The notes beneath the pieces are model-generated. The model was not told the origin of the DNA. It saw only the letters and a program-made list of their open reading frames with translations, and ran no database searches. DNA of 44,769 bases from contig CADBIY010000011.1 of assembly GCA_902794895.1 (NCBI GenBank), positions 1-44,769 of the forward strand, written 5' to 3'. Of the stretch, positions 7,005-24,908 are shown in pieces; positions within the stretch are counted from its first letter, which is position 1; every line of letters starts with the position of its first letter. A program made the translations under genes and the position numbers. The DNA comes from Candidatus Avelusimicrobium vaccinum. Its GTDB lineage: Bacteria; Elusimicrobiota; Elusimicrobia; Elusimicrobiales; Elusimicrobiaceae.

Positions 7005-7015
7005 GAGTTGAAAAT

Positions 7016-7948
7016 ATGAAAAAAATTGTAGCACTATTAGTTTTTTCAATCGTAGCTAGTAACTTGTTGGCAGCACAGCCCCAAAAAGCTGCTGCTAAAA
7101 AAACAAAAGCCACCTTTGTAATTGTGGAAGATGAAAATTATCCCGCCGGAAAAGAAGATAAAGGATTAACAGCCGGTTTAGCTGAATTTTTAGGAGTAGT
7201 GCCGGAAGTAACTCATATGCCTTATTCCGTAGCCAAAACTAATGAAAAGTTGACGGGATTGGATTATAGTTTTCTACCGCTCTATTTAATCAAAAAGACG
7301 CCGGACATTCGTTCTAAGATGGAAAAGCATATTCAGTATGGGTACGTGTTGGAAAATGACGAATATGTAATTTTGCCACATCAAACTCGTACCGGTGTTT
7401 ATACAGGCAAAACGGCGAAACCGGGGATTATGGAAATTTTTGTTATGTCGCAATGCCCGTATGGGGTAATGGCTGAAAATGCCGTGATTAAAGCCCAAAA
7501 AGAAGGCAAATCTCCCAAAGCCAATGACGTGCGCCTCCGTTATATTGTGGATTATAATGATGCTAAAGGTTTTAGCAGTTTGCACGGATCCGGAGAATGG
7601 GAAGAGGATGTCCGCCAATTGTTAATTGCAAAATACTATCCGGGAAAATTGTGGAAGTATTTGGAAATCCGCAATAAAGACTATCGTTCCAGCCGTTGGG
7701 ATAAAGCAATGGAAGATGCCGGTATTAACGTTAAGAAAATTATGAAGAAATTTGATAGCGAAGGCTTGGAACTTTTAAAACAAGAAGCCGCTTATGGCAA
7801 GGAATATGGCGTAAATGCATCTCCTACCTTCTTATGGGAAGGAAAAGTGCAAATGGATTTTGGTTCCGCCTCGCAGGTAGAAGGCTTTGAATTCTTAAAT
7901 CCGAACGCCGCAAAACCGGATGCCCAAGCCCCGGTAGGAAGTTGCTAA
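7016..7948 (+). CDS. Secreted thioredoxin-fold protein with CPYG instead of CxxC
   Basis: A 310-residue protein with a signal peptide (residues 1-20, ending NLLAA). The second half is thioredoxin-like: MEIFVMSQCPYGVMAENAV carries Cys147 at the end of a beta strand, and ASPTF near residue 265 matches the cis-proline loop of DsbA-like proteins. The usual second active-site cysteine is glycine (CPYG). The only other cysteine is the final residue, Cys310 (PVGSC). Such a protein cannot run the ordinary CxxC disulfide chemistry alone; it may act by a single cysteine or use the C-terminal one. The exported proteins encoded downstream contain many cysteines, which makes a folding role attractive but unproven. 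Last gene before a terminator. Confidence 0.7.
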   Translation: MKKIVALLVFSIVASNLLAAQPQKAAAKKTKATFVIVEDENYPAGKEDKGLTAGLAEFLGVVPEVTHMPYSVAKTNEKLTGLDYSFLPLYLIKKTPDIRSKMEKHIQYGYVLENDEYVILPHQTRTGVYTGKTAKPGIMEIFVMSQCPYGVMAENAVIKAQKEGKSPKANDVRLRYIVDYNDAKGFSSLHGSGEWEEDVRQLLIAKYYPGKLWKYLEIRNKDYRSSRWDKAMEDAGINVKKIMKKFDSEGLELLKQEAAYGKEYGVNASPTFLWEGKVQMDFGSASQVEGFEFLNPNAAKPDAQAPVGSC

Positions 7949-7975
7949 CTTTTAGTTTCAGAAAGGTTATACAGT

Positions 7976-8008
7976 GAGGGATGGGGGGTGTCCCGTCCCT
8001 CTTTTTTT
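7976..8008 (+). terminator. Rho-independent terminator after the thioredoxin-like gene
   Basis: GAGGGATGGG (7976-7985) pairs with CCCGTCCCTC (7992-8001) with one G-T pair, a six-base loop, and seven T directly after. The next ATG is only about 25 bases downstream, so the kinase gene at 8030 must rely on read-through or on a promoter overlapping this hairpin. Confidence 0.85.
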
Positions 8009-8029
8009 AGAAGGAACTCTTAAGAATAT

Positions 8030-9913: not shown

Positions 9914-11018
9914 GATTTTGGTGGTAGATGATGATAATAACCTGCGGGAAACGCTGGTGGATTTATTGGAAATTGAAGGATATAAGGTGTATCAAGCCGG
10001 TAATGCGGCGGAGTGTTTGGATATTTGCGCCAGTGAATTTTTTCAGATTATCCTGATGGATTATAACTTGCCCGATAAAAACGGGATGGATTTGATTCGT
10101 GAAATCCGGTCTTTTAACCAAGATTCGCAAATTATTATGATTACAGCGTACGCTTCTTTAGGTGCTATTATGGAAGCCATGCAGGAATCGGTATACGATT
10201 TTTTGATGAAACCGGTAGATTTTGATTATTTAAAACGGACGATTAACCGCGCCTTAGATAAATACTTTCTGGAAGAAAGCAACCGGGAGTTGGTGGCCGA
10301 GTTGAAAACCCGTAATGAAGATTTAGGCCGCTTGAATAATATGAAATCTAAGTTTTTCTCGATGGTGTCGCATGATTTGTCCAACTCGTTGATGACACTT
10401 AAAATGAGTTTTGATATGTTCAAAAAGAAATTTACTCCTACGGATGAACAACAACAAAAAATGATGTTCATGAGTGAATCAATTAACCAAATTGAACACT
10501 TGATTAAAGATTTAGTGGATTGGGCTGCCATTGAAAAAGGCAAGTTGCGCATTGATAAAACTTATTTTGAACTGACGGAGAGTTTAAAGAAAACGGCCGA
10601 AATTTTTAAAGTCAAGGCCCAAAAGCGTAATATTCAAATATCCTTTGAAAGTGCGGGAGCCATTTCGGTGCTGGCGGACGAAAAACGTATTCGGCAAGTC
10701 ATTTCTAACCTGTTGGAAAACGCGGTCCGGCATACGCCGGATAACGGCACCATTGAAATAGTAGTTAGCAAAACAGATGAAAAAAATGCTAAAGTGTCGG
10801 TAAAGGACTCTGGGGACGGTATTGATCCGGCCACTGCGCCCAGTTTGTTTACCAGTTTTATGCAAGTAGGTACGAAAGAAAAAGTCGGCCGTTTGGGGCT
10901 TGGCCTTTCTATTGCTAAAGAAATTATCGTCAATCACGGCGGGCGTATTTGGGCCCAAAGTGAGGGGCTTGGAAAAGGGGCCACCTTTAATTTCACATTG
11001 CCGGTGGCAGGAAACTAA
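9897..11018 (+). CDS. Receiver-histidine kinase hybrid (REC-HisKA-HATPase)
   Basis: A soluble 373-residue signalling protein. Residues 1-120 form a receiver domain with the acidic pocket VVDDDNN, phospho-acceptor Asp55 in LMDYNLPD and Lys105 in FLMKPVDF. After a coiled linker, residues 150-215 form a HisKA domain with His159 in MVSHDLSNSL, and residues 255-373 a HATPase_c domain (NLLENAVRHTPDNGT, DSGDGIDP, GRLGLGLSIAKEI). Putting the receiver before the kinase suggests a relay: the upstream membrane kinase may phosphorylate Asp55 and so switch this kinase, which in turn may act on the LuxR-type regulator. The order of events is inferred from gene order. It overlaps the upstream kinase gene by 17 bases. 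Confidence 0.92.
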   Translation: MEKQVKILVVDDDNNLRETLVDLLEIEGYKVYQAGNAAECLDICASEFFQIILMDYNLPDKNGMDLIREIRSFNQDSQIIMITAYASLGAIMEAMQESVYDFLMKPVDFDYLKRTINRALDKYFLEESNRELVAELKTRNEDLGRLNNMKSKFFSMVSHDLSNSLMTLKMSFDMFKKKFTPTDEQQQKMMFMSESINQIEHLIKDLVDWAAIEKGKLRIDKTYFELTESLKKTAEIFKVKAQKRNIQISFESAGAISVLADEKRIRQVISNLLENAVRHTPDNGTIEIVVSKTDEKNAKVSVKDSGDGIDPATAPSLFTSFMQVGTKEKVGRLGLGLSIAKEIIVNHGGRIWAQSEGLGKGATFNFTLPVAGN

Positions 11019-11039
11019 AGGAACACTTTACGGGAGTTT

Positions 11040-11735
11040 ATGATGAATAAGAAAAAAATAACGGTATTGATTGCAGACGATCAGACACTTTTCCGCGAAG
11101 GGATTAAGGATGTGCTGAGCGGTGAAAAGTGGATGCAGGTGGTAGGGGAAGCGGCCGACGGTGTAGAAGCCGTTGCAAAAGCCAAAAAACTGAAACCGGA
11201 TGTGGTGCTGATGGATATTAAACTGCCCAAATTAGACGGTATTAACGCAACCCGCCAAATTCGGGAATCTTGCCCGACGGTCAACGTGCTTATGTTATCC
11301 AGTTTTGAAGATGAAGCCCACGTATTAGATGCAATTCAAGCCGGTGCCAATGGTTATTTATCAAAAATGTTGCCCGCAGTGGAACTGGTTAATTCCATTA
11401 AAACTTTTACCAGCGAAGGGTTGATGATTCCCCAACAACTCATGGGTAAACTGTTACACGGGTTGCGCAAAATGGGGGATGGCGGTATGCCGTCGCAAGC
11501 CATGCTTACCAAGACGGAAATTAAAGTCATGGATTATTTAGGTAAAGGGCTTAGCAATAAAGAATTAGCGAAAGAACTGGGTTGCAGTGTAAAAACTATT
11601 AAAAACCATTTGAACAGTGCCTTTCATAAATTAGGGGTAAGCAGCCGGACCGAAGCCGTGGTAAAGGCTATCGAAAAAGGGCTGATTTCTTCCGAAGGAA
11701 CCACCATTCCGGACGAAGACGAATACGAGGGATAA
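11040..11735 (+). CDS. NarL/LuxR-family DNA-binding response regulator
   Basis: A 231-residue regulator. The receiver domain has the acidic pocket LIADDQ, phospho-acceptor Asp59 in VVLMDIKLP and the conserved Ser in VLMLSSFED. The C-terminal LuxR helix-turn-helix (about residues 153-215) shows LTKTEIKVMDYLGKGLSNKE, followed by ELGCSVKTIKNHLNSAFHKLG. It should bind DNA when phosphorylated. ATG 11040 and ATG 11043 are both possible behind GGGAG. It lies 21 bases after the hybrid kinase and 2 bases before the small pilin gene, so control of pilus genes is a reasonable inference. Its targets may include the promoter at 14000, but no binding site was recognised. Confidence 0.92.
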   Translation: MMNKKKITVLIADDQTLFREGIKDVLSGEKWMQVVGEAADGVEAVAKAKKLKPDVVLMDIKLPKLDGINATRQIRESCPTVNVLMLSSFEDEAHVLDAIQAGANGYLSKMLPAVELVNSIKTFTSEGLMIPQQLMGKLLHGLRKMGDGGMPSQAMLTKTEIKVMDYLGKGLSNKELAKELGCSVKTIKNHLNSAFHKLGVSSRTEAVVKAIEKGLISSEGTTIPDEDEYEG

Positions 11736-11737
11736 AA

Positions 11738-11917
11738 ATGTCCGTCCCAATGGGAAAAGTGCGGCAATTTGTTACGCGAAAAAAAGGCCAAGCCACAGTG
11801 GAATATATCTTGATGTTATCTTCCATCGTGGTGATACTTTCGGCTTTTTTAACGGCATTTCATACGCATATTGTTCGTTTCTTTTTTCAGTTTGTGGGCA
11901 GACTATTGGCCTCTTGA
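11738..11917 (+). CDS. Small Flp/TadE-like prepilin (59 aa)
   Basis: Starts with ATG 11738, 2 bases after the regulator's stop, and ends with TGA at 11917. The product begins with a short basic leader and has KKGQATVEYILMLSS, the class III / Flp prepilin signature (Gly followed by Gln-Ala-x-x-Glu-Tyr), then one hydrophobic helix (about residues 24-41) and a short basic/hydrophobic tail ending GRLLAS. Mature size, about 42 residues after cleavage at the Gly, matches Flp major pilins. It is too short for a 60-residue cut-off and would be missed by routine gene calling. Within a Tad locus it is the best candidate for the major pilin, although a minor pilin is possible. Confidence 0.8.
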   Translation: MSVPMGKVRQFVTRKKGQATVEYILMLSSIVVILSAFLTAFHTHIVRFFFQFVGRLLAS

Positions 11918-11926
11918 GTAAACACG

Positions 11927-13093
11927 ATGCGACGAAACTTTTGGATAGGAAAGTTAAAAGAACGGCGGGCGCAAATTTTGCTACCGTCGGTCCTTTTGGC
12001 GCCTATTTTTATTTTAGTGATCTATCTGTTGTTTGAAACGGCCAAAGTATCTATGACCAAAGTCCGCCACCAGTTCGCATTGGATAATGCCGCCTATTCG
12101 CAAGTATCTTCCGCCAGCACTTACTTAAACGCTGTAGCTATGGTAAACGGACCGTTGCCGTTTCGTGTCATGCGTTATTATGGAAGCACGGAAAAATTAC
12201 AATATAAAGCAAGTGCATCTGGGTTGCAAGATATTACTATTTTTGAATTATTTTATAAGAGCGGAGCCGTGCCTTCTTTGTTAGGGGATCAAGACGGGAC
12301 GAAGGCCAATTTGAGTCCGGCTCAGCAGTCCGTGGATTGGCAAGTCCATTATGTGTCTGCGCCCCCGAAAGGGGAACCGGCTAACGTAGTCCAGGGGCAA
12401 GAAAGCGGGGATCCCGCTATTATTTCCCGTAAAGACTGGGAAAAGGAATTGCCGACTCCTCCGGGGGATAACATCGTACGGTTACTCAGTTATCAATTAG
12501 TTCACAACTACCATTTCCCGGCGGGAAAACTGGGGATTCCGGTACTATCGCAATATTTAACTACCTATGTGTATGACGGTTCCATTTACAAATCGCAGGA
12601 TTATGTGTATAAAGAAGTTACAAAAAATGAAGTGATGTTCCGCGAAGGATATTGGCTAAACGTTAGCAATTGTAAAAAATCGGAGTGTGCCCGGGAGAGT
12701 GCGGCTAAACTCCGTCCGTTTTTAAACATAAGAACTAAACCGTTTGAAATTGAAAACATGGAAGTTTTCTTTTCGGACGGCGGCCCTAAACGGGGGGATA
12801 CGCACGGTGGAGCGATGGGCACCGTTTTGAAAGCGACGCAATTATTGAATGGTCAAAAGTTATTTCAATTTGCGTATTTGGATCCTTCCAGCCGTGGCCG
12901 TTTGCGGTCTTTACAACGGGGAGTTTTGCTGAAACAAAAATTCAACCTGCCCCGCAATCATTTTAATATTAATTTGGAACAAAAATATAAACCGTATGTG
13001 CGTACTAAAGTATCGTTGGCTTGCCCGCGCAACAGTAATAACTGCGTATGGCCGAACCCGTTACCTAAGTACAACGTAACATTAGATCCATGA
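11927..13093 (+). CDS. TadE/TadG-like pseudopilin with large exported domain
   Basis: A 388-residue protein with a basic N-terminus (MRRNFWIGKLKERRAQ) and one membrane helix (about residues 18-40, ILLPSVLLAPIFILVIYLL) followed by KVSMTKVRHQFALDNAAYSQ, the layout of TadG/TadE-type minor pilins. The rest is an extracytoplasmic domain with two cysteine pairs (NCKKSEC and CPRNSNNC). It starts 9 bases after the small pilin gene and overlaps the next gene by 4 bases (ATGA). RRAQILLP replaces the KGQAT motif of its two neighbours, so prepilin peptidase may not cut it. Family membership is judged by architecture and context. Confidence 0.65.
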   Translation: MRRNFWIGKLKERRAQILLPSVLLAPIFILVIYLLFETAKVSMTKVRHQFALDNAAYSQVSSASTYLNAVAMVNGPLPFRVMRYYGSTEKLQYKASASGLQDITIFELFYKSGAVPSLLGDQDGTKANLSPAQQSVDWQVHYVSAPPKGEPANVVQGQESGDPAIISRKDWEKELPTPPGDNIVRLLSYQLVHNYHFPAGKLGIPVLSQYLTTYVYDGSIYKSQDYVYKEVTKNEVMFREGYWLNVSNCKKSECARESAAKLRPFLNIRTKPFEIENMEVFFSDGGPKRGDTHGGAMGTVLKATQLLNGQKLFQFAYLDPSSRGRLRSLQRGVLLKQKFNLPRNHFNINLEQKYKPYVRTKVSLACPRNSNNCVWPNPLPKYNVTLDP

Positions 13094-13638
13094 GGCGATT
13101 AAACATTACTTTATTTCGTTCCCGTAAAGGGCAGGCTACCACGGAAGTAGTACTGTTGTTTCCGCTTTTTGTTATTTTTATTTTATTTATTATTAAAATT
13201 TTCGGGCTACTGGTATTAAGCCAAAAAATGGAAATTGCCGGATATTATGCGGCCCGGCGATATCAGTTGCAATCGCACGAAACGGATTATTATCACCGCA
13301 CCTGGGACCGCCGATTCCTCATGAAAGACATTCAAAAAAAAGTAGAAAATTATTTAGGTTTTGATAATCCGGGTATGAAGAAATTTCTCAGTTTGCGCCG
13401 GGTAAAGGTGGATATTAATCCCAGCGGTAGTTGGACGAAAGTGGTCATCACGGCTCAAACCAAACCGCCCATGATTCCCTTTTTGTGTAAATATAATAAA
13501 GACCAAGTCTGCGACCGGGACGATTACTGTTTAAAAGGCTATGCCTTTTTATGTGAAACAGGCGGGGAAGTGGTGGTCAATAAATATGTAGGTCACAACG
13601 AACGCCCGGCCCCGTATATGCGTCCGGAAGGGAAGTAG
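13090..13638 (+). CDS. TadE-like minor pilin
   Basis: A 182-residue protein with the prepilin motif RKGQATTEVVLLFPLFVIF, the same KGQAT-x-E signature as the 59-aa pilin encoded at 11738. One membrane helix covers about residues 20-42. The exported domain contains four cysteines in about 25 residues (CKYNKDQVCDRDDYCLKGYA and a later Cys), suggesting two disulfide bonds. TadE family proteins are pseudopilins processed by the Tad prepilin peptidase. The start overlaps the stop of the upstream gene (ATGA), so translation is coupled. It is the last gene before a terminator. Confidence 0.75.
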   Translation: MRRLNITLFRSRKGQATTEVVLLFPLFVIFILFIIKIFGLLVLSQKMEIAGYYAARRYQLQSHETDYYHRTWDRRFLMKDIQKKVENYLGFDNPGMKKFLSLRRVKVDINPSGSWTKVVITAQTKPPMIPFLCKYNKDQVCDRDDYCLKGYAFLCETGGEVVVNKYVGHNERPAPYMRPEGK

Positions 13639-13663: not shown

Positions 13664-13694
13664 ATCCCGGCAGTTTTTTAGCCGGGATTTTTTG
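13664..13694 (+). terminator. Rho-independent terminator at the end of the Tad-like operon
   Basis: ATCCCGGC (13664-13671) pairs perfectly with GCCGGGAT (13681-13688), followed by a run of T. It separates the pilus locus from the unknown operon that starts at 14116. Confidence 0.85.
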
Positions 13695-13999: not shown

Positions 14000-14028
14000 T
14001 TGACAATCCGTTCATTTCTACTTATACT
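14000..14028 (+). promoter_or_regulatory. Sigma70-type promoter of the unknown operon
   Basis: TTGACA at 14000-14005 and TATACT at 14023-14028 with an ideal 17-base spacer. The 5' leader to ATG 14116 would be about 80 bases. The rest of 13639-14115 contains no convincing gene; it holds the terminator and repeats listed separately. Confidence 0.85.
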
Positions 14029-14115
14029 GTAAATAGAAGCAACAGGAACTCTGTGTTTGAGTGGTTGAAAAACCAGGTCAACAAGAGTAGTTTTTATTTA
14101 TGTAAAGGGGTTTGT

Positions 14116-15609
14116 ATGTTTAAATTAAAAACCGGGAATGTTATTCAAAAACTTAACAAAATGGATCGCAAACAGGCTTACACCTTGGCTGCGATAGTGG
14201 TGGTATGTTTTATTGCGCTGCTTTCACTTGCTTCCTTTTTAGGGGGTGCGGATGATACTTCTTTTGACGGAATGACCACCCGCGGGTATGATTTAGCCCA
14301 AATGCCGTTTGTGAATGACGAAGCCGAATCCTATCTGCTGGCCTCCAAGTATCCGGATATGCAAAACAACGGAAGTTCGCTGTTGTATTCGCCGGAAGAA
14401 AAAGAAGCCCGCCAGGAAGAAGATGCGGCAAAGGCCGAAGAGGATGAAGAAAGTACTTCCGGTTCTTCCGGCCGGGAAGATTCTTATTCCGGGAGAGGCT
14501 ATGGCGGCCGGGGGTATGGCTCGGGCCGCGTCGGATCCAGAGGATCCACCACCGTGGGGCAATTGGGCCAAGCCAGTGTCAAAGGCGCCGGCGGTAGCGG
14601 TATGACGGGCACTTTTGGGGCTCCGCGTGGGGACTTTTCGCCGTATAAAAGCCAGGATAAAGGAACGGAAATTGCGCCGCAGTTAAAAAATACAGATGCT
14701 AAAAAAGCGCTTTCCCAATTTGCGCAGACTAGCCGTGCCGCAGCCGGACTGAAAGACGGTAAAGGCGGCAACGCGAAAAAAGCGTTAATGGGGGGAAATA
14801 TTAAAGGGAGTGAAGCCTTTACCGATAAAGGGGTAGATTTAAGTAAATCGGGCGGACTCGCTCTGGATACCAACGCCCCGGTAACTTCGGCAGACCTTAG
14901 CAACTTGGAAGATAAATTAGATGATGCCGCCAAAGAAGCCAAAGAGGAAAACGACCAAATACAAGAAGATATGTGGGACCGCCTGCGGGAGCAATTATTT
15001 TCGGGGATGATCAATATGGTGCTTAATTTAGCAGGCCAGGCTGCTAGCAACTTATTAGATAAAGCCATGTACGGAAGTACAACCAAGGCTGCCAGTAAAG
15101 AAGTAATGCAACAGCAGTTAGGGGCAACTTATGATCCTAAGAATCCAGATGGAAATAAATTGGCCCAACTTCAACTGTGCGGTAGCACGAAAGGCTGTGA
15201 TGCTTACGACAAGTGGATGACAGGAGGAACCGTGGCGGATGCAGCTAAGAGTTATGGTGTAAGTAATAGAGATATGCGTCTTAATGTAAAACACAATGCC
15301 GGGCAATTTTCGTATGGTACAGGAACTTTGGCGGATGTGTATAGCGGAAAGAGCATGCAAGTGGGTTCCTCAAGTGGTAACGAAACTCCAGATTTAATGC
15401 GTGTTACGGAAGGAAAGAATTTTTCGCAGAACCCAGACCCAACTAATCAAAATTATTACCACTCACTAAGGAGAGATAACTCATCAAATGGGGGAGCATC
15501 CGCTTGGACACCGTGGGGAGGACAACAAAATAGTAACAATACAACCACGCAGACGGGAGAGTGCCCTCCGGGGACGACTTGGATGGCTCCTAGCGGAAGG
15601 TGTCAATAA
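14116..15609 (+). CDS. Membrane-anchored low-complexity protein, first gene of unknown operon
   Basis: A 497-residue protein I cannot assign to a family. A short basic N-terminus precedes one membrane helix (about residues 21-43). Outside it are an acidic stretch (EEKEARQEEDAAKAEEDEES, about 94-113), a Gly/Ser/Arg/Tyr-rich segment (118-170), an Ala/Lys/Gly-rich segment, a long charged helix (258-295) and an amphipathic/hydrophobic helix (296-312). The C-terminal part has two cysteine pairs: Cys355/Cys361, and Cys483/Cys496 in the last residues (ECPPGTTWMAPSGRC). ATG 14116 is chosen for the AAAGGGG ribosome site; an upstream in-frame ATG at 13966 lies before the promoter and is unlikely. Layout resembles the 1299-aa protein encoded at 20950. 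Base composition shifts from the low-complexity 5' part to a more AT-rich 3' part. Confidence 0.75.
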   Translation: MFKLKTGNVIQKLNKMDRKQAYTLAAIVVVCFIALLSLASFLGGADDTSFDGMTTRGYDLAQMPFVNDEAESYLLASKYPDMQNNGSSLLYSPEEKEARQEEDAAKAEEDEESTSGSSGREDSYSGRGYGGRGYGSGRVGSRGSTTVGQLGQASVKGAGGSGMTGTFGAPRGDFSPYKSQDKGTEIAPQLKNTDAKKALSQFAQTSRAAAGLKDGKGGNAKKALMGGNIKGSEAFTDKGVDLSKSGGLALDTNAPVTSADLSNLEDKLDDAAKEAKEENDQIQEDMWDRLREQLFSGMINMVLNLAGQAASNLLDKAMYGSTTKAASKEVMQQQLGATYDPKNPDGNKLAQLQLCGSTKGCDAYDKWMTGGTVADAAKSYGVSNRDMRLNVKHNAGQFSYGTGTLADVYSGKSMQVGSSSGNETPDLMRVTEGKNFSQNPDPTNQNYYHSLRRDNSSNGGASAWTPWGGQQNSNNTTTQTGECPPGTTWMAPSGRCQ

Positions 15610-15636
15610 TTTGTTAATTTTTACGGAGGTAAATTT

Positions 15637-17259
15637 ATGAATATCTTACAATGGCTCAAAGACTGCGGCGGCAAAATGGCCCTGTCTGCGTTGCAGACGG
15701 CAGGGCTTGCCACCGTGGTAGGGGTAGCCGGGCTCGGAGCGTACAGTTTTTTAAGTGCTCCGGCGGAAGACCCCGCTCTTTCTCCTTCGTCCTACAATCC
15801 GGGCGAAGTGGTGTATGTGGCCGGGAACCCCAATAGCGGCAATTACCAAAGCGGGGCGTATGTGTCCGCACAGGATAGCGGCTCCGCGCTGAACGAATCC
15901 TCGGTGCGTATTTCTGCCAAGACGCTCAACCGTCTAAATGAGGCAGACCGCCGGGATCAGGCTTTTGATGAGATGGAAGAACAACAATCCGCCAACTATT
16001 CGGCTCCGGTCGGTCCTGCTTATAAAGGCGGCGCCACGGAAGGGCTCGGCATGGGGGCCAACGTCGCTAACGAAATGGGCCTGAACGCGGAAGGCCTGGG
16101 TGGAAACGACCCGATGGCGGCGGTTTCCGGCATGATGGGCAATATGCAAGGGATTATGAACCAAGCCCAGCAACAAGCGCAAAACGCGGCCCAAGGCAAA
16201 CCGTCCGCGGACGAAAAAGGGAATGCTCCCGGATTAGCCGGTTTAAAATCTTCCGGGATGGCTACTGCCCCGAGTATAGGTGGGGCCGCTAATGGCGGGG
16301 GAAACGGATTTAATGCCTCTTTTACCGTACAAAACAGCGGTAAAAATAAAGGCGGTGCCGGGAATGCTAACATGCCGGATATGGGGAACGTAATGGCCTC
16401 GGCCCAACAGCAAATGTCTTCTGTGATGGACGGGATGCGCCGCATGCAGGCCAAAGCCTCTTTTGGAAAAGAGGAAGGCCTGGGCAGTAGCCGCGATGCG
16501 GACATCATGAATGTGAATAACACCAAAGGCGGCAAAGAGTTGAAACTGATGATGAAACAATCCGCCCAGGTGGCCAAAAACAAAAACCGTGCCGCTAACG
16601 ACGGAAGCGATCCGTTCTTGTCCGATACAAAAGTTTCCGGCGGCATGCAGATTTCCGCGGAAAATGTAACCACCGGGCAAGGTCAGGGCTCTAAAGATTT
16701 TGAAACGGATGCAAACTCAAGTTTACGCGGTATCCAATCCTGGGGCGACGATGCGCAATTGCATGAAGATAAAGTGAAAGCCGCGCGGGACCGTTTACGT
16801 CAAATGATGTGGACGGCTATTCCGACTGTTTTGGCATTATCCGTTGCAATTGCAGGGTTTCTTATGATCGCCCGATCTGGTTTTTGGGGATGGTGGGCTT
16901 ATGCTGTTGCTGCTGGATTGACTGTGTTGGCATTGGTTACTTGTGCGCTCTTAATTACTACGGCTGTGCAATATATTAAAATCAGGGGCTCCGGGTCCAG
17001 TTTATCCACGTGGGGTATTGTTACCGGAGGGGTGCTGATTGCCATTACAGGTGCGGCTTGGATTCCCGGATTTGCAATTGCAAAAAAGAAATTGCAGGAT
17101 ATGGCATTGAAAAAGTTGATTCCTCTATTTGCTACATTAGCGGGTCTTGGGGCGGTTGGAGGTGCCATGTCCGCTATACAAGGTGGAAATGCGGTTAAAG
17201 AAGGTAGTAGGGATATTAAAGAACTTAAAAACACCGAATTGGATTCTGATTCTAAATAA
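15637..17259 (+). CDS. Polytopic Gly/Ala-rich membrane protein, paralogue A
   Basis: A 540-residue protein. One hydrophobic helix lies at about 21-39 (TAGLATVVGVAGLGAYSFLS), followed by about 340 residues rich in Gly, Ala, Asn, Ser, Met and Gln, and then four hydrophobic segments near 392-412, 417-446, 458-481 and 494-514. It shares with the 511-aa protein encoded at 17551 the element GLGMGAN (137-143), a Lys/Asn-Arg-Ala-x-Asn-x-Gly-Ser block (KNRAANDGSDPFLSD), a SGGM-I motif, and the helix ending ARDRLRQMMW just before the membrane part. Strong ribosome site ACGGAGG. Not recognised; the Gly/Ala-rich polytopic layout vaguely recalls TrbL/VirB6-like secretion channel proteins but no shared motif was seen. 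Confidence 0.75.
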   Translation: MNILQWLKDCGGKMALSALQTAGLATVVGVAGLGAYSFLSAPAEDPALSPSSYNPGEVVYVAGNPNSGNYQSGAYVSAQDSGSALNESSVRISAKTLNRLNEADRRDQAFDEMEEQQSANYSAPVGPAYKGGATEGLGMGANVANEMGLNAEGLGGNDPMAAVSGMMGNMQGIMNQAQQQAQNAAQGKPSADEKGNAPGLAGLKSSGMATAPSIGGAANGGGNGFNASFTVQNSGKNKGGAGNANMPDMGNVMASAQQQMSSVMDGMRRMQAKASFGKEEGLGSSRDADIMNVNNTKGGKELKLMMKQSAQVAKNKNRAANDGSDPFLSDTKVSGGMQISAENVTTGQGQGSKDFETDANSSLRGIQSWGDDAQLHEDKVKAARDRLRQMMWTAIPTVLALSVAIAGFLMIARSGFWGWWAYAVAAGLTVLALVTCALLITTAVQYIKIRGSGSSLSTWGIVTGGVLIAITGAAWIPGFAIAKKKLQDMALKKLIPLFATLAGLGAVGGAMSAIQGGNAVKEGSRDIKELKNTELDSDSK

Positions 17260-17270
17260 AGGGGCATACT

Positions 17271-17540
17271 ATGGCACAAAAACAAGAATTTGTACCGGGA
17301 CCAAAGTTAATTTGGCTGTTCCGTATCGTGTTATTGGTGCTCTTTGTGGTGTGGGTGGCGGGTGCTATTCACTTGCACCAAGTTGTTAAGGCCGACGAAG
17401 CCGCCATTGCCCAACGCGAACAGGTGCTCCACCAACAGGAAGAACGGGCGCGCCGGGCGGCCGCTTACGAAAGGAGCCGTTTGCAAGAGCAAGTAGACCG
17501 TAACACCAGTAAAAACGTAGTAGACGGTTTTAAACGTTAG
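17271..17540 (+). CDS. Small membrane protein with coiled-coil tail
   Basis: An 89-residue protein with one membrane helix (about residues 13-34, LIWLFRIVLLVLFVVWVAGA) followed by a charged helical tail of about 50 residues with heptad-like spacing (REQVLHQQEERARRAAAYER). Ribosome site AAGGGG. It sits 11 bases after paralogue A and 10 bases before paralogue B, which suggests that it works together with both, for example as a stoichiometric linker. No family recognised. Shape is similar to small bitopic division or secretion accessory proteins such as FtsB/L, but no specific similarity is claimed. Confidence 0.65.
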   Translation: MAQKQEFVPGPKLIWLFRIVLLVLFVVWVAGAIHLHQVVKADEAAIAQREQVLHQQEERARRAAAYERSRLQEQVDRNTSKNVVDGFKR

Positions 17541-17550
17541 GAGAATAGTT

Positions 17551-19086
17551 ATGAAATGGTTATCCATCTTAAAAAATAAAGCGGGTAAATTTACCCTCGG
17601 TATTCCGCAAATGGTCGGGATTGCCGGAGCCGGTATGTTGCTTACCTACGGAGCGTTTCAAGCCGATAACGCCATGGACCAAAAAGGTCCGGTTCGCTCC
17701 TTAACTTCCATTTCCGATACGCAAAATTATAGCGGAATGGACCGGACTTCAACCGGGCAATTAACTTCCATGAAAATTAAGGACGGCCTGAACCAGGTTG
17801 CCACCCGGGAAGAACGGGAACGTATGGAAGGCGGACGTTCTTCAAACGATTTCGGTTTAAGCGGCGTGGACGGGATAGAAGGGCGGATGTCTGCCGGCTC
17901 TTACGGTCCGGCGGCCCCCACCGGTGCCAGTGACGGGCTGGGAATGGGTGCGAATGCGGCCGTAGAAACCGGAAATACTTATATTGCCGCTTCCCGGGCT
18001 TCCGCTGGATCTGGTGTAGCCGGATTGAATGCCGGTGGAAATGGAAACGGCGGGACTTCCGGAGCAAACGGCGCTCAAGCCTCGTCCGGCTCTTCCTTGG
18101 GTTCTGCCTCCATAGCGCGTGCCTCGGGGAGTGCTTTTAATGCCGCGGCGGGTGCTGTTGCCGGTGGCAAAATGGGGGGAAGTGCCTCTAACGGACGTTC
18201 CGGGGCCACCCATGGCGGTGCTTCCGGGGACGGATACCAATTTTCGGGGGCTATGCCGGGCAGCAGCAGTGCGGTGGCTTCCTTGGCGGATGGCGGCCGT
18301 GCTCATGGATCGGCGGCATCCGGTTTTATGGCAAGCAGCCGCCGCGGTTCAGCGGGGCGTGCCACCCGTTCTAACAGTCAAGGGGATTTGAAAGATATTT
18401 CCAAACGTTCTGCTGATGCAGCCAGAAACCAACACCGGGCCACAAACGAAGGCAGCCGCGCTTTTTTGGCTTCTTCCCAAAATTCCGGCGGTATGACCAT
18501 TGAAGGCGGTGTGGAAACGGAATCCACCGGTTCAGCCGATTTTGAAGCCCCGGCTACCAATTCCCTCAAAGGGTTAGGCGATTGGCAAAAGAAGGCGGAA
18601 GATAAAGATAAGGAACAACAAAAGGCCCGCGAACGCTTACAGTGGATGATGATTGCTATGATTGCCGGAACTTTCATTGCCATGCGACTGGGATTCTCCC
18701 TGATTCAGAAAGGTAAAAAAGCGGGTTTATTTGGATGGAGTTTTATCGCTTGGGGTTGGACAGTATTAGGTATTGGGATGGCCTATGCCGCTGTGGTAAT
18801 GGGATTTGCAATAGACTATATGACAAAATTCAATGGTCTCTTTATGCCGATTACGGCACTCGTATTAGGTGCAGCCGCCGTTACCGCGTTGGCTATTACC
18901 GGTGCTAAAGCCATGGCTGCAATTGGTCAATCAGCAGCAGAACTTGAAAAAAATAAATTCGCTGCATTTACCAAAGATGCATTTAAACAAGTTGCTATGA
19001 CGGGCGCTACGACGGGTGCCTCAATGGTCATGGAGGCGGGTAACAACGCGGATAGCAAGGCGATGGAAAATCCGCACAATAAATAA
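17551..19086 (+). CDS. Polytopic Gly/Ser/Ala-rich membrane protein, paralogue B
   Basis: A 511-residue paralogue of the protein encoded at 15637. It has an N-terminal hydrophobic helix (about 19-36), about 325 residues very rich in Gly, Ser and Ala, and three hydrophobic segments (about 364-384, 393-421, 430-456). Shared landmarks are GLGMGAN (129-135), HRATNEGSRAFLASSQNSGG versus KNRAANDGSDPFLSD in paralogue A, NSLKGLGDW versus SSLRGIQSW, and the helix ARERLQWMM before the membrane part. The C-terminus differs, with about 50 soluble residues. Ribosome site AGGAG. Long antisense frames in this gene are a by-product of its base composition. Function unknown; the duplication suggests a hetero-oligomeric membrane assembly. 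Confidence 0.75.
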   Translation: MKWLSILKNKAGKFTLGIPQMVGIAGAGMLLTYGAFQADNAMDQKGPVRSLTSISDTQNYSGMDRTSTGQLTSMKIKDGLNQVATREERERMEGGRSSNDFGLSGVDGIEGRMSAGSYGPAAPTGASDGLGMGANAAVETGNTYIAASRASAGSGVAGLNAGGNGNGGTSGANGAQASSGSSLGSASIARASGSAFNAAAGAVAGGKMGGSASNGRSGATHGGASGDGYQFSGAMPGSSSAVASLADGGRAHGSAASGFMASSRRGSAGRATRSNSQGDLKDISKRSADAARNQHRATNEGSRAFLASSQNSGGMTIEGGVETESTGSADFEAPATNSLKGLGDWQKKAEDKDKEQQKARERLQWMMIAMIAGTFIAMRLGFSLIQKGKKAGLFGWSFIAWGWTVLGIGMAYAAVVMGFAIDYMTKFNGLFMPITALVLGAAAVTALAITGAKAMAAIGQSAAELEKNKFAAFTKDAFKQVAMTGATTGASMVMEAGNNADSKAMENPHNK

Positions 19087-19094
19087 TTCTCACA

Positions 19095-19121
19095 CGCAGG
19101 GGAGATACAGTCTCCCCTGCG
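19095..19121 (+). other. Perfect 11-bp hairpin between two genes of the unknown operon
   Basis: CGCAGGGGAGA (19095-19105) pairs perfectly with TCTCCCCTGCG (19111-19121) around a TACAG loop. It is not followed by a T-run, so it is unlikely to be a strong terminator. It could protect the upstream mRNA 3' end or set the ratio between upstream and downstream genes. Confidence 0.75.
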
Positions 19122-19144
19122 CTTTATAATTGTTAAGGAATTTT

Positions 19145-20740
19145 ATGCCAGAATCACGAGAACAAGAACAAGGACAAGTTTCCAAGGAATCGCAAGCAGA
19201 GAATGCTACGGCTCCCTTGGATATGGCTAAGCAAAAAATGAAAGATATTTTGCGCTCAAAGCGGGCGTGGGGTATGTTAGCCGTGATTTTGTTCTTGCTG
19301 GCGGGGGGGACGTTGGTTCCCGTGGGGCGGATTCCACTCCTGCGCAATTTAGTCTATGCCATGGGATATACGCCGGAAGAAACCTTGCGCTTATCCCTTT
19401 TTCAAGCCTTGTTTTCCTGGAATGAACACCAAAAAATTTTAAGAGGGGAAATTCCGGACCCGAATGAACTGGATGTATTTGGCTCGGCTGAGGCTGCCAC
19501 CCGCGCCGCTGAACTGGCCGCCCGGAAAGAGGGACGTTTGAAAGATGCGTTAATTAATATGGGGGCTGTGAATGCATCCCTGCGCCGCCAGGGACGCGGA
19601 GCCGAACAAGTGGCCGGATCTTCCGGCGGAATTGATGCAGACCGCGAAGACGGCGCGCAAGTCGTTCTCAATAATTCAAATGCTTCTACAAATACCGAAT
19701 CTAACGCCGCCCAAGTAAGTGATGTCTATTTTGGTGCGGATGTCAATGGAGTCCGCCGTGATAAACGAGACGGTTATGACTCGGTAAACTCTTTAAAGAA
19801 AGCCGCTTCTCCCATTCGGGGAGCCAGCGGGTCTTCCAATACTGATTGGGTGGTCCAAATGGCCGATAAGGCCACTAGGCAAGATGCACAACTTAGCGGT
19901 ATTAATGATAATTTAGAGGCTAAGGGATTATCGGCCGGGCTGGGCCAGGTGGAAAAAGTGGGCAAAGATAAAGCGCGGCGCGATTTATATTGGGCTTGGT
20001 TAACCGGACGTGCGGCCCGGCGGACGCCACAGGTAATACTCAAAAAAACGCTTGCCTCTTCCAGTTTTGACGGGGCCGAATTGCCGAAAACAGTCTTTAT
20101 GTCTTCGGGTTTTTCCGGCATTGGGGTCAATCCGGATGATGTCATTGCCGATATGAGCAGTGTCAAAAAGTATTTGGAATTGGATGAAAAATGTAAAGAA
20201 CTCTTGGAAACAGAATTTAATGATGACTATGAAAACCAACTCAAAGAAATGCGTAAAGAAATTGCGGAGATAGGGGACTCCTTCCCGAAAAATTGTGAGG
20301 ATAGTAAGAATACCACTTTTACTCAACATCTTACCTCTGTTAAAAATACCTGTAATACCATTCGGGCAAAATATCAAAAATTGAATAACAAGTGTTCGTC
20401 GAATCCTGTTTCTAACAGTGCGGACCAGTGTTATGAACGCGAAAAATTAACGAACCTAAGAAATAATTTTGAAAGTTATTGTGATAATCTGTACGAAGAA
20501 GCAAGAAAATCATGTGCTGATGCTGCAGATTTTAATGCCTGTTATGATCCTAAGAAAGCAGAAATTGACGGGAAAAAAGTACAAGATAGCGATGTTGACG
20601 ATAAAGATATCGATGTACAGAATGAAGTGAACCAAGGATATTTCAAGGATGGCGACCCGGAGCAAGGACTTAACAACAGTTATTTCCCGACGGCAGATTT
20701 GGGCAATAGTTTGTGGGTAGATGAAAATGCTATTGATTAA
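19145..20740 (+). CDS. Membrane-anchored protein with cysteine-spaced helical C-terminus
   Basis: A 531-residue unassigned protein. About 40 cytoplasmic residues precede one membrane helix (about 41-58, AWGMLAVILFLLAGGTLVPV). The outer part has Ala/Arg-rich helices (AEAATRAAELAARKEGRLKD), a Ser/Asn/Gly linker, and from about residue 345 a helical, charged domain with eight cysteines at rather even spacing (EKCKELL, KNCEDS, KNTCNT, NKCSS, DQCYE, SYCDN, KSCAD, NACYD). An even number fits disulfide bonds formed outside the cytoplasm. The end is acidic (DVDDKDIDVQNEVNQ). ATG 19145 is preferred over TTG 19130 because AAGGAA lies between them. The cysteine-rich tail makes it a likely client of an exported disulfide system. 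Confidence 0.72.
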   Translation: MPESREQEQGQVSKESQAENATAPLDMAKQKMKDILRSKRAWGMLAVILFLLAGGTLVPVGRIPLLRNLVYAMGYTPEETLRLSLFQALFSWNEHQKILRGEIPDPNELDVFGSAEAATRAAELAARKEGRLKDALINMGAVNASLRRQGRGAEQVAGSSGGIDADREDGAQVVLNNSNASTNTESNAAQVSDVYFGADVNGVRRDKRDGYDSVNSLKKAASPIRGASGSSNTDWVVQMADKATRQDAQLSGINDNLEAKGLSAGLGQVEKVGKDKARRDLYWAWLTGRAARRTPQVILKKTLASSSFDGAELPKTVFMSSGFSGIGVNPDDVIADMSSVKKYLELDEKCKELLETEFNDDYENQLKEMRKEIAEIGDSFPKNCEDSKNTTFTQHLTSVKNTCNTIRAKYQKLNNKCSSNPVSNSADQCYEREKLTNLRNNFESYCDNLYEEARKSCADAADFNACYDPKKAEIDGKKVQDSDVDDKDIDVQNEVNQGYFKDGDPEQGLNNSYFPTADLGNSLWVDENAID

Positions 20741-20763
20741 AAAAGATTTTTTTAAAAACCCCC

Positions 20764-20791
20764 TTGAAAAAATACAAATTATTGGTATAAT
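20764..20791 (+). promoter_or_regulatory. Promoter upstream of the 1299-aa gene
   Basis: TTGAAA at 20764-20769 and a perfect TATAAT at 20786-20791 with a 16-base spacer. It gives the last gene of the block its own transcription start with a leader of about 150 bases. Confidence 0.7.
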
Positions 20792-20809
20792 AGTAATATA
20801 TACCAGTAA

Positions 20810-20944
20810 GTTGTTACAGAGTGGGGGACCATCTCTGAACAACGGCTTTTTATTATGGTAATGAAGTGATTTTGGGGAGATGTACCCTACATCTTTCCAA
20901 CGGGGGCAACCCCTGACAAAGCAGTTTTTTATTTTCACAGGAGG
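20810..20944 (+). promoter_or_regulatory. Structured two-part leader with terminator-like hairpin
   Basis: GTTGTT-A-CAGAG (20810-20821) pairs with CTCTG-AACAAC (20833-20843) with a single bulged A, then GGC and five T (20847-20851), which looks like an intrinsic terminator or attenuator. A second part holds AGATGT/ACATCT (20878-20883 with 20889-20894) and GGGG/CCCC (20903-20906 with 20910-20913), then six T (20925-20930). The two halves resemble each other (GGGGG..., CTGA-CAA..., T-run, ATT). AGGAGG for the 20950 gene is at 20939-20944. No known riboswitch consensus was recognised. Confidence 0.6.
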
Positions 20945-20949
20945 CTCTT

Positions 20950-23900
20950 ATGCCAGAGGAAAAAGAAGAAAAGAAAGCAACCCCTTTTTTTGTACCTGCT
21001 AATAAAGAGGGCAAGAAAAAGGAAAGCTTTACCTTTAGCGATAAGATTAAGAACAGCAAACCGGCTCCTTCTAAATCTTTTGCTAATCGTCCTTCCTCTA
21101 AAATCGGGAGCGACGGCAAACCGCGTCAAACGCTTTTTGAGCGCACGAAACGGGATGCGCCGTTCTTTATTGCGGCCTTAGTGGCCCTTCTTTTACTGCC
21201 GTTCTTGTATAAATATAGCGGCAACGTAAACGAAGAACCCACGATGGTTACTCCCGGTTATGAGGATTCCGCCTTTAACCCGGAACGTTCCGGGTTTGAT
21301 GGTTTTGCTGCTGACCCGGATGGGCAAATCGCCCAATTGGCCGGACGGGATTCTATGTCCTTAATTCTTCCGTATGGTGCTAAAAGCACGGACGAAGAAG
21401 AAACGGACGAAGAATATGATTCCCGCAGCGCTTATATGGGGGAAGGGTCTTCTGCTTCGCACAGTTTAGATGAACAAGACGAAGAAGAAAATACCACCAA
21501 TATTTATAAATACCGTAAAAAAGCCCCGGCGGCAACCCGGGCGGCGTTTAAACGTGCTGCTACGAAAATCGGCCGTTTAGGCAATGCCGGACGCGCAGGC
21601 GCAAACGGTAGTAAATTAGGCATTGGAATGTGGGGCGGCGGCATGAAAACCGCGGCTAACAAAGTGCGTGGCAAAGCACCGGAAAGTGCTCCTAAGCCCG
21701 TATCCTTGCAACCGTTACAAGCGGCCGGGAAACCTTCCCGCTCGTACTTCGGGCAAGGGCCTGCACGTGAAGCGGCCCGCTCTAAAGATGCCATGTCCAA
21801 AGGAAACGCTATGCAGGCTTTGATGGACGCTCAAATGAAACCTGTGGAACCCGGCAAAATCGGCGGGATCCTGGGCGGAGATTTTGGCGGCCCGGGCGGC
21901 GGTAATGGCGACCTGAAACGGGAATTTGCCTTCAGTGGTAAAGAACCGTGGTGGTGGGACATGATGAAACAGCGATCCATGATGGAATGGCAGAAAGAGT
22001 TTGAATACAAATGGGGCTGGATCAACTGGGCCACCGATTTAGCCAAAAACATCTTAGGCGGCGTGTTGAATTGTTTAATTACCGGTAATGATAACGGCGA
22101 TATGGGCCATATGTTTGGTGCCGTAGCAGGCTCCGGTAAAAAAGACGAATGCTGTGGTATGGATGAAGATAAGTTTAAGGGAGCCGCTCCTGGAGTAGAA
22201 TTTAGCGAAAAGGCTTGTAAAGGTTGGGTGACGGCGCATCCGGAAGTAAAGTGTTCTACGAAGTGGGTAAGCGGTCATAAAGCCTCTGCTAATTTAGGAT
22301 TCTTTGGTTCCCGCATGGACTGTTTAACCAACGGTTTGTGGGCTGGTCGCCAAGCGAAAAGAGCCGGATATGGTGTTGTAACTGAAGCGGACGACTGCAC
22401 CACCTTCTATCAAACCGGGCGTTATAAAGCGGAAGTAGGCGGTCCGAAACGGACTATGTTCCACTATGTGGTAGGTATTCCGTTTGATAAAGTGGAAGCC
22501 TTTTTCAAGGAGAATAATGCTGATAAACGCAGAGAAATGTTACAAATTGCCTATTTTGGCAAAGGTGGCAGCTTTGCGGTAGACAGCACCGAAGCCCAAC
22601 AGACAATCAATAAAACGAAATTTGTACCGTTGTTTATTGAAACGGTTGCCATTAAAAATAGAAAATTAAATAAAAAGACTGCCGGTAAGAATGGATATGA
22701 ATTCTCCGAAATAGAGGGGGGTTCCGAAGCATTCCTTACTGCTGGCAAAGAGTCCAAAATTGGCATGCCTTATACGGAGTTCTTAAAACGTTTATCTGAC
22801 GGCGGGGTTGTGGTTACTACAGAACCTGGTGCAACTCCCATCATGTCGGCCAAGGGCAGTAAAGAAGGCAAAAGTTGGAGCACGGGAGCGCGTTGTGCCT
22901 ATCCGATGGCGTTTATCTCTTGCCGCAATAATGCATTATCGGTCAACGGACAACCACAAGAAGGTGTGATTGTAGGTACTCCGGCGGCATTTATTAAGTT
23001 GCCGAATTTAACGGGCAAAGTCGGGGCTGCACGTCCTTCCCAAGCAGAACTTGATAAGTTAACGCCGCACTTCTCGGTAATGTATGAAATTCAAGGTGCT
23101 GACCAAAATGCGGCCACGGGGTTATCCACCTCTACCAATTCTGCTACGGGGCGCATGTACTTTGCCAATGTACATCCCTCTAATGCAGGGTATGAGGATC
23201 CGAGCATTACCAATGATCATGGTATTACCTTTCAACCGAATGATGGTACTTATACGGTCAAGGTGGCAGGGGATGCCCTAAGAGAATTAAAACAATTACG
23301 GGTAGGCCCGGACGGTGAAAACCGCGCGGTGATTACGTGGACGGTCCGCCAAAACTATGATCCGGATGAACCCTGGGCGATTGCACACGCGATTGCGGAT
23401 GGTCATGGCGGCGGGAACACAGTTTCCGGCGACAAAGGCGCTGGTGGTTCCGGTGCGAAGGCCCCCGGCCAAATTGTCAGCCAAGCAACTTGTGTGTACT
23501 TTGATGACGATACGGAGCCAGCACCACTGGATCCTCACTCTTGCAGCGATGGAGAAACTCGGACGAATAGCGAAGGATGTGAAGAAGAGTGTAAAAACAA
23601 TGTTTGGGTAAAAAAAGATCCCGACTGTCCTAATCGTCGTATTCCGGATCCGGTTCCTCCTTTGCCAATTAACTCAAATCCGGGACCAAATCCGGTACCA
23701 AATGCCGAACAAAAGGTGGAGTTTTATAGAACCTTTAAATCTATGACGGAAGATCCATTAAATGATAAAGACTCTGGGCGTCCGCTGTTGACTCGCAATA
23801 CAGAGCCGAAGAAATGGAACACCTGTCAAATTGATAATCTATCGGCAGTATTGTTGGATTATGATCAAGATAGCGAAACCCAAGCTTATATGAAAGCGGC

Positions 23901-24849
23901 CACAGATGCCTATACGAAGGCGAAGGCTGACGGAAAAGCGACCAAAGCAATGAAGCCTTATGGGGTAAGTCTTGAGCAAGGCGGGCAAGTGTCCGACAAA
24001 CATCCGACATTAGCCCAAGTGGTAGATGCCATGCGTATTAGCCAGTCCTTGGGAATAACGAATGTTCCGAAAAACACTGTGTGTGCGATGGCTAGAACGA
24101 TTGGTATTGCTTCTAAAGATCCGCATTCGCCCAACATGAGTAATATGTTTGGTGCATTTGCCGCATATATCGATTACGATTCTTCGTTCTTCCCAACAAT
24201 GCGCGTGACAGATACCTCTAGTGGGGTAGGAATTGATCGGCGTTTTCATGGATGTTATGACCGAAGACGCTCTAATCAACAAGTCTTGGCTCAGGTAGGT
24301 CAACGAATGCAACAAGACCGTGTAAATCAGGCTGGGCAAGGCTGTGGAGAAACTCGTAATGGAGCGGCAGGAAAGAATGAATGTTCCGCTTTCCACTATG
24401 GTCACTACAACTGGAACGAAAAAACGATCGGCGATTTGGCTCCGGGGAGCGGCTGTGTGGATCGCTCAAAGAAAAAATGCTTGCAACGAGATCGTATCCC
24501 TTATGAGCAGATGATAGGTCTAACTCGTCGAAATATCTGGGGTAAATTTCCGTTACGAGAGTTATCTACAAAAAACGGAGTGAAAATTTTTGTACGGGAA
24601 GAAGGCCCAGTGACTAGCACTCAAACGCGTAATGGGACGATAGATTCCTATAACCGTAAGAACTATCATAAGGCATACAATAAAATATTCCACGTGAGCG
24701 GAGAGAGTTGCGGTTATGGTTCCTCCGACATGATGCCCGTAGATAAGGCTTTGGAATATATTGATAACTTGTGTCAAAATGGCATTACGAACAAGCCAAG
24801 TAATGGTGCTCGAATTCCCTGTGAACACCACTACTTAGCAGACTTCTAG
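20950..24849 (+). CDS. Giant membrane-anchored modular protein (1299 aa) of unknown function
   Basis: About 68 basic cytoplasmic residues precede one membrane helix (about 70-87, APFFIAALVALLLLPFLY). The outer part starts with an acidic stretch (STDEEETDEEYDSR, about 155-170), a basic Ala/Gly-rich segment, and a Trp-rich helical block (EPWWWDMMKQRSMMEWQKEF, then KWGWINWATDL). Then come a large domain with several cysteine pairs (starting DECCGMDEDKF), a Gly-rich linker, a small cysteine cluster (SCSDGETRTNSEGCEEEC), a Pro/Asn-rich linker (PDPVPPLPINSNPGPNPVPN) and a C-terminal domain of about 390 residues with about ten cysteines. Strong AGGAGG ribosome site. TM, acidic stretch, Gly-rich linker, amphipathic block and Cys-rich end follow the same order as the 497-aa protein at 14116. 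Likely an extracellular structural or adhesive protein; no family recognised. Confidence 0.75.
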   Translation: MPEEKEEKKATPFFVPANKEGKKKESFTFSDKIKNSKPAPSKSFANRPSSKIGSDGKPRQTLFERTKRDAPFFIAALVALLLLPFLYKYSGNVNEEPTMVTPGYEDSAFNPERSGFDGFAADPDGQIAQLAGRDSMSLILPYGAKSTDEEETDEEYDSRSAYMGEGSSASHSLDEQDEEENTTNIYKYRKKAPAATRAAFKRAATKIGRLGNAGRAGANGSKLGIGMWGGGMKTAANKVRGKAPESAPKPVSLQPLQAAGKPSRSYFGQGPAREAARSKDAMSKGNAMQALMDAQMKPVEPGKIGGILGGDFGGPGGGNGDLKREFAFSGKEPWWWDMMKQRSMMEWQKEFEYKWGWINWATDLAKNILGGVLNCLITGNDNGDMGHMFGAVAGSGKKDECCGMDEDKFKGAAPGVEFSEKACKGWVTAHPEVKCSTKWVSGHKASANLGFFGSRMDCLTNGLWAGRQAKRAGYGVVTEADDCTTFYQTGRYKAEVGGPKRTMFHYVVGIPFDKVEAFFKENNADKRREMLQIAYFGKGGSFAVDSTEAQQTINKTKFVPLFIETVAIKNRKLNKKTAGKNGYEFSEIEGGSEAFLTAGKESKIGMPYTEFLKRLSDGGVVVTTEPGATPIMSAKGSKEGKSWSTGARCAYPMAFISCRNNALSVNGQPQEGVIVGTPAAFIKLPNLTGKVGAARPSQAELDKLTPHFSVMYEIQGADQNAATGLSTSTNSATGRMYFANVHPSNAGYEDPSITNDHGITFQPNDGTYTVKVAGDALRELKQLRVGPDGENRAVITWTVRQNYDPDEPWAIAHAIADGHGGGNTVSGDKGAGGSGAKAPGQIVSQATCVYFDDDTEPAPLDPHSCSDGETRTNSEGCEEECKNNVWVKKDPDCPNRRIPDPVPPLPINSNPGPNPVPNAEQKVEFYRTFKSMTEDPLNDKDSGRPLLTRNTEPKKWNTCQIDNLSAVLLDYDQDSETQAYMKAATDAYTKAKADGKATKAMKPYGVSLEQGGQVSDKHPTLAQVVDAMRISQSLGITNVPKNTVCAMARTIGIASKDPHSPNMSNMFGAFAAYIDYDSSFFPTMRVTDTSSGVGIDRRFHGCYDRRRSNQQVLAQVGQRMQQDRVNQAGQGCGETRNGAAGKNECSAFHYGHYNWNEKTIGDLAPGSGCVDRSKKKCLQRDRIPYEQMIGLTRRNIWGKFPLRELSTKNGVKIFVREEGPVTSTQTRNGTIDSYNRKNYHKAYNKIFHVSGESCGYGSSDMMPVDKALEYIDNLCQNGITNKPSNGARIPCEHHYLADF

Positions 24850-24873
24850 TAGAGATTAAAAAAACAGTAGTTG

Positions 24874-24908
24874 ACCAAGGCACTTTATTAAGGTGCCTTG
24901 GTTTTTTT
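24874..24908 (+). terminator. Rho-independent terminator ending the unknown operon
   Basis: ACCAAGGCAC (24874-24883) pairs perfectly with GTGCCTTGGT (24893-24902), followed by a run of seven T ending at 24908. It cleanly separates the block from the TPR-rsmA genes. Confidence 0.92.

What the first reader, a model, noticed from the sequence alone, without database searches (positions are those of the whole stretch)
14116..24849. Six-gene operon of large unassigned membrane-anchored proteins behind a Tad locus
Seen: six consecutive + strand genes with strong ribosome sites. Five encode proteins of about 500-1300 residues with a membrane helix near the N-terminus and long Gly/Ala/Ser-rich regions, and one encodes an 89-residue membrane/coiled-coil protein. 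None shows a motif I can link to a known family. Inference: together they form a membrane-spanning surface or secretion assembly that works with, or is regulated together with, the neighbouring Tad pilus and its two-component genes. This is the strongest candidate for a new system in the window.
Basis: partly seen in the sequence, partly recalled or inferred. Interest (0 to 1): 0.85.

Follow-up and report, generated by a model that had tools for sequence, protein, structure and literature searches.

The report
RNA-led envelope genes beside Tad pilus
Gut Elusimicrobia carry a fast-changing set of six membrane-anchored proteins of unknown family next to their pilus machine, switched on from their own promoters through a previously unlisted folded RNA leader, and probably bracing the cell envelope around that machine.

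Summary
The six genes (O1-O6) are real and have no relatives in Pfam, NCBIfam, PADLOC or the PDB. They lie in conserved order behind a complete Tad locus in essentially every genome of this Elusimicrobiaceae genus; relatives occur in three or four sister genera. In one complete sister genome (E. minutum-sized) the set is scattered over three sites, yet a full complement is kept, so it behaves as one functional unit. The sister family has the same Tad locus with only one Gly/Ala-rich anchored protein there. O6 of two sister genera ends in an OmpA-like peptidoglycan-binding domain, placing it in the periplasm. My reading: an inner-membrane-anchored periplasmic scaffold of the Tad machine (inferred, about 45%).

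The strongest new result is a structured RNA in the O1 leader (14047-14099): 16 pairs, strong covariation, no Rfam family. It occurs in 73 of 79 family genomes, before O1-type genes and, where O6 is unlinked in one sister genus, also before O6. A second hairpin precedes O6 in the window's genus. "One operon" is doubtful: O1-O5 and O6 look like separate transcription units.

The parts
13664..13688 (+). terminator-like hairpin with T run after E2, separating the Tad-side genes from O1
   Evidence: found in 1 of 8 relatives by the same strict scan, so not general
14000..14028 (+). sigma-70-type promoter of O1 (TTGACA-17-TATACT, 11/12)
   Evidence: the same 11/12 site in 9 of 10 relatives
14047..14099 (+). 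structured RNA leader R1 (16-pair imperfect hairpin with conserved unpaired bases, then a U-rich tail)
   Evidence: no Rfam family
14116..15609 (+). O1, 497 aa, N-terminal membrane anchor; conserved to about residue 270, variable C-terminus
15637..17259 (+). O2, 540 aa, Gly/Ala-rich with 3-4 C-terminal membrane helices; paralogue of O4
17271..17540 (+). O3, 89 aa, one membrane helix then a charged helix
17551..19086 (+). O4, 511 aa, paralogue of O2
19095..19121 (+). 12-bp perfect hairpin in the O4-O5 gap; strong hairpins at this place in all 10 relatives examined
19145..20740 (+). O5, membrane anchor plus helical C-terminal domain with six conserved cysteines
20764..20791 (+). promoter of O6 (TTGAAA-16-TATAAT, 11/12)
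   Evidence: in all 15 relatives checked
20807..20856 (+). structured RNA leader R2 of O6 (14 pairs)
20950..24849 (+). O6, 1299 aa, cytoplasmic tail, membrane anchor, conserved N-terminal third, Cys-rich variable C-terminal part
24873..24903 (+). intrinsic terminator after O6
148..13638 (+). neighbouring Tad locus: tadA (cut by contig end), tadB, tadC, TPR, sensor, two-component genes, two TadE-like genes

Best explanation
O1-O6 form one lineage-specific accessory set of the Tad (type IVc) pilus machine of gut Elusimicrobiaceae. Shown: the genes, their conservation, their absence elsewhere in the sampled phylum, their retention even when scattered, their own promoters, and a conserved structured RNA leader on O1 (and on O6 where O6 stands alone). 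Inferred: the proteins sit in the inner membrane with most of their mass in the periplasm, are braced by disulfides, and O6 ties the set to the peptidoglycan layer, giving a scaffold around a Tad machine whose secretin is reduced to little more than the pore domain. The RNA leaders, at the 5' end of each messenger, are probably recognised by a regulator (protein, small RNA or ligand) that sets the amount of the set separately from the pilus genes.
For: Conserved order E2-O1..O6-TPR2-ksgA across the genus. O6 in 57 of 58 same-genus genomes; the one miss, G003, has O1-O5 on a contig that ends just after O5. In G088 the set is split over three sites, all apart from Tad, but O1, O2, O3, O5 and O6 remain. 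The sister-genus O6 C-terminus matches OmpA-like domains by profile (best E 1.9e-8, many OmpA, Pal and YfiB chains). N-terminal anchors with positive residues on the N side and conserved cysteines beyond them. Secretin of 240-260 aa that is almost only the pore domain. R1: 98% of cells paired, 9 of 16 pairs changed on both sides, far above slid versions. 73 of 79 family genomes have R1, and 63 of 65 aligned copies were placed before O1 (61) or O6 (2) genes; the other two are the window's own O1 leader and a contig end.
Against: No experiment and no solved relative. The window's own O6 C-terminus does not match the OmpA-like profile, so the peptidoglycan link is shown only for sister genera. 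Tad is near-universal in the order, so co-occurrence says little about dependence. In G088 and G030 the set is not next to the Tad genes. The very fast divergence would also suit exposed proteins. Disulfides are inferred from conserved cysteines only.
Confidence: 0.45

Rival explanations
1. O1-O6 are surface-exposed or pilus-tip proteins (adhesins), and their fast evolution reflects contact with host or competitors.
For: O1-O6 are the most diverged genes of the locus (median bit-score ratio 0.18-0.33 against 0.52-0.91 for the other genes that could be measured at near-full length); C-terminal parts vary most; weak Ig-like sandwich matches of the O6 model.
Against: Inner-membrane signal anchors, no outer-membrane or sorting signal recognised, an OmpA-like periplasmic domain at the end of sister O6; none of the Foldseek hits is significant.
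Confidence: 0.2
2. The set is an independent envelope structure (for example a wall-anchoring or division-related scaffold) that merely lies next to Tad.
For: Own promoters and leaders; unlinked from Tad in G088 and G030.
Against: Adjacent to E2 in most genomes of the window's genus and several of genus g12; Gly/Ala-rich anchored proteins occupy the same place in the sister family and in g16.
Confidence: 0.3
3. It is a diverged known system (type IV, type IX or type II secretion, or conjugation).
For: Membrane-anchored large proteins beside a secretion-type ATPase; an FlgD_ig/CHU_C giant and a PorV/UPF0164-like protein lie upstream in relatives.
Against: No family hit for any of the six; no ATPase among the six. 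SprA_N was not found, but the control genomes rang in none, so that test is inconclusive.
Confidence: 0.05

Closest known systems
Tad / Flp (type IVc) pilus locus
   Same: TadA, TadB and TadC, RcpC/CpaB, secretin, TadE-like minor pilins and Flp-like small pilins in one locus
   Different: TadZ-like domain fused to TadA, secretin almost only the pore domain, and six extra anchored proteins plus RNA leaders. For P. aeruginosa Tad, PMC12307814 reports that apart from RcpC and the RcpA periplasmic domains no other locus-encoded protein is predicted in the periplasm.
Inner-membrane proteins with an OmpA-like peptidoglycan-binding end (MotB/PomB, TssL with OmpA domain)
   Same: Sister-genus O6: N-terminal anchor, long periplasmic part, OmpA-like end
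   Different: O6 is much larger, its N-terminal part is unrelated to any family found, and the OmpA-like end is not detectable in the window's genus
Cis-regulatory leader RNAs (riboswitches, protein-bound leaders) in Rfam
   Same: R1 is a conserved 5'-leader structure with covarying helix and conserved unpaired bases
   Different: No Rfam family at gathering score, and no credible one at relaxed thresholds; tied to one gene set in one family

Membership tests
Tad (type IVc) pilus locus (neighbouring genes) | TadA-type ATPase and two TadB/TadC platform proteins | tested here: met
   T2SSE 2.7e-61; T2SSF 4e-17 and 3.1e-15
Tad (type IVc) pilus locus (neighbouring genes) | RcpC/CpaB and secretin | tested here: met
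   in relatives, upstream of the window's contig edge: RcpC 5e-19, Secretin 2e-42
Tad (type IVc) pilus locus (neighbouring genes) | TadE-like minor pilins | tested here: met
   TadE 8.1e-11 in a relative; the window's E2 1.5e-4 and 22.3 bits, just under the 22.9 cut-off
Tad (type IVc) pilus locus (neighbouring genes) | Flp major pilin | tested here: inconclusive
   small class III-like pilins, Flp_Fap E 0.006-0.04, below cut-off
Known Tad component families (O1-O6) | profile match to any Tad protein family | tested here: not met
   no match above cut-off
OmpA-like peptidoglycan-binding proteins (O6) | C-terminal OmpA-like domain | tested here: inconclusive
   met for genera g12 and g13 (E 1.9e-8; Pfam OmpA in 4 of 9 members, sub-threshold); not met for the window's genus
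Type IX secretion | SprA translocon | tested here: inconclusive
   none found, but the control rang nowhere
Known RNA family (R1) | match to an Rfam model | tested here: not met
   none at gathering; only implausible hits at E up to 10
Riboswitch (R1) | ligand binding changes gene expression | not testable with these tools
   needs in-line probing and reporter assays

The most novel reading that the evidence does not exclude
A trans-envelope scaffold unique to Elusimicrobiaceae that anchors their Tad machine to the peptidoglycan layer, with its level set by a dedicated, previously unlisted regulatory RNA (R1) that senses a protein or small molecule.
Probability: 0.3. Interest if true: 0.8.

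Novelty: new variant of a known kind. Interest (0 to 1): 0.6.

Why it matters
It gives a widespread, little-studied gut lineage a conserved, testable envelope module: six proteins without known relatives, kept together even when their genes scatter, plus a covariation-supported leader RNA dedicated to them. If the scaffold reading is right, it shows how a Tad machine with a minimal secretin can be braced across the envelope. If only the RNA holds, it is still a new cis-acting RNA class with a clean regulon of one or two copies per genome.

Tried and rejected
Pfam, NCBIfam and PADLOC for O1-O6: nothing. Profiles of O1, O2/O4, O5 and O6 against PDB sequences: nothing meaningful. Foldseek of the O5 and O6 models: no significant match. 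A phage DNA search and a plasmid protein search: no match. Common ancestry of O1, O2/O4 and O6: weak local profile similarity (about 82-89%, absent from reversed controls) limited to short Gly/Ser-rich stretches, so left open. Homology of the sister-family Gly-rich protein to O5: too weak to claim. A proton-channel (MotA/ExbB-like) reading of O2/O4: dropped, since I saw no conserved acidic residue in their membrane helices in the alignment. R3, a third hairpin before O6 in the subclades without R2: covariation only modest. R1 hits in two f15 genomes: marginal (E 0.005-0.01), treated as chance. Literature: no paper found on Elusimicrobium Tad pili or such an RNA in the open library.

Full report
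Setting. The window is contig C11 of a 1.45-Mb, 98.9% complete genome; related loci are named uncultured Elusimicrobium or Elusimicrobiaceae gut MAGs. The contig starts at window position 1, so tadA (148-1569) is cut. Relatives show the full locus: FlgD_ig/CHU_C giant protein, PorV/UPF0164-like protein, small Flp-like pilins, TadE, RcpC/CpaB, a 260-aa secretin, a TadZ-like-TadA fusion, TadB, TadC, TPR, membrane sensor, two small genes, histidine kinase, hybrid regulator, LuxR-type regulator, two TadE-like genes (E1, E2), then O1-O6, a TPR protein and ksgA.

The genes. O1-O6 are coding: ribosome sites, conserved order in nearly all relatives examined, and strong conservation blocks. O2 and O4 are paralogues (profile-profile 100%), with a further copy in one subclade genome (L031). 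None matches a curated family or a PDB sequence or fold. They are the fastest-evolving genes of the locus, mostly in their C-terminal halves.

Distribution. O6 is found in 57 of 58 same-genus genomes and in genera g12 and g13 of the same family, with a marginal hit in g16 and none elsewhere in 295 genomes of the phylum. O5 and O1 add genus g14; missing members there coincide with contig ends. With deeper profiles, g16 shows an O5-like and an O6-like gene at the end of its own run of Gly-rich anchored proteins. The sister family keeps the Tad locus (marker x5597 in 97 of 101 order genomes) but has a single Gly/Ala-rich anchored protein downstream of E2; its relation to O5 is only hinted at. In G088 (1,643,562 bases, one contig) the Tad genes lie at 1.29 Mb, O1-O2-O3 at 0.71, O5-TPR-ksgA at 0.77 and O6 at 0.65 Mb. 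In G030 the set lies about 200 kb from Tad. Retention despite scattering is the best evidence that the set works together.

Topology and domains. Anchors: O1 24-42, O3 13-31, O5 48-66, O6 69-87, all with more positive residues on the N side; O2 and O4 have a weak N-terminal segment and several C-terminal helices. O5 has six cysteines conserved in at least 97% of orthologues in a confidently predicted helical domain without a PDB match. The O6 model is of middling confidence (mean pLDDT 70.6, pTM 0.48). The C-terminal region of g12/g13 O6 matches OmpA-like domains at E 1.9e-8 (single sequence 1.2e-4). The window-type C-terminus shows no similarity to it, so this end has been exchanged or has diverged beyond recognition.

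Transcription and RNA. The Tad side and O1 are separated in the window by a terminator-like hairpin. O1 has a TTGACA-17-TATACT promoter and O6 a TTGAAA-16-TATAAT promoter, repeated in relatives. Just downstream of the first lies R1. On 29 distinct sequences 98.5% of cells are paired, 9 of 16 pairs change on both sides, and the covariation score is 0.395 against 0.06-0.12 for slid structures. On 65 matches fitted to the model the picture is the same (that alignment leans to the structure). A covariance model finds it in 73 of 79 family genomes: once per genome in the window's genus, twice in several g12 genomes (before both O1-type genes), and in both g13 genomes searched before O1 and before the now separate O6. 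It is not found in g15, g16 or the sister family. Of 65 aligned copies, 61 precede O1-type genes and 2 precede O6; the other two are the window's own copy, 16 bases before the O1 start, and one at a contig end. No Rfam family fits. R2, before O6 in 38 of 66 genomes of the window's genus and almost always the only copy, is supported by less variation; its model's second-best, non-significant hit in the window falls on R1. The O4-O5 gap holds a strong hairpin of ever-changing sequence in all ten relatives examined.

Reading. The safest conclusions are the lineage-specific gene set, its retention, and R1 as a real structured leader. The scaffold role is inference from topology, the sister-genus OmpA-like end, the reduced secretin and position. 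What R1 responds to is unknown; it does not obviously cover the ribosome site, and its conserved unpaired bases suggest recognition by a partner.

Noticed in passing
L040:14513-16876 (relative of window 148-1569): TadZ-like (CbiA/MinD) domain and TadA ATPase are fused in one 770-790 aa protein across the family and in sister-family genomes.
   Followed up: partly
L040:13727-14509; L104:8322-9044: The Tad secretin is only 240-260 aa and is nearly all pore domain.
   Followed up: no
L040:5502-12026: A 1460-1813 aa FlgD_ig/CHU_C protein and a PorV/UPF0164-like outer-membrane protein sit directly upstream of the Flp-like genes; SprA was not found, but that search had no positive control.
   Followed up: partly
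window 5597-6709: Membrane sensor resembling a histidine kinase input half without a kinase domain, among the best-conserved genes of the locus, present in 97 of 101 order genomes.
   Followed up: no
O6 leaders of L024, L030, L037, L122, L124 and others: Subclades without R2 carry another hairpin (R3) whose loop resembles the D arm of class II tRNAs; covariation modest.
   Followed up: partly
window 7016-7948: Exported protein with a weak DsbA/thioredoxin-like hit and a single CPYG cysteine, next to genes for Cys-rich periplasmic proteins.
   Followed up: no
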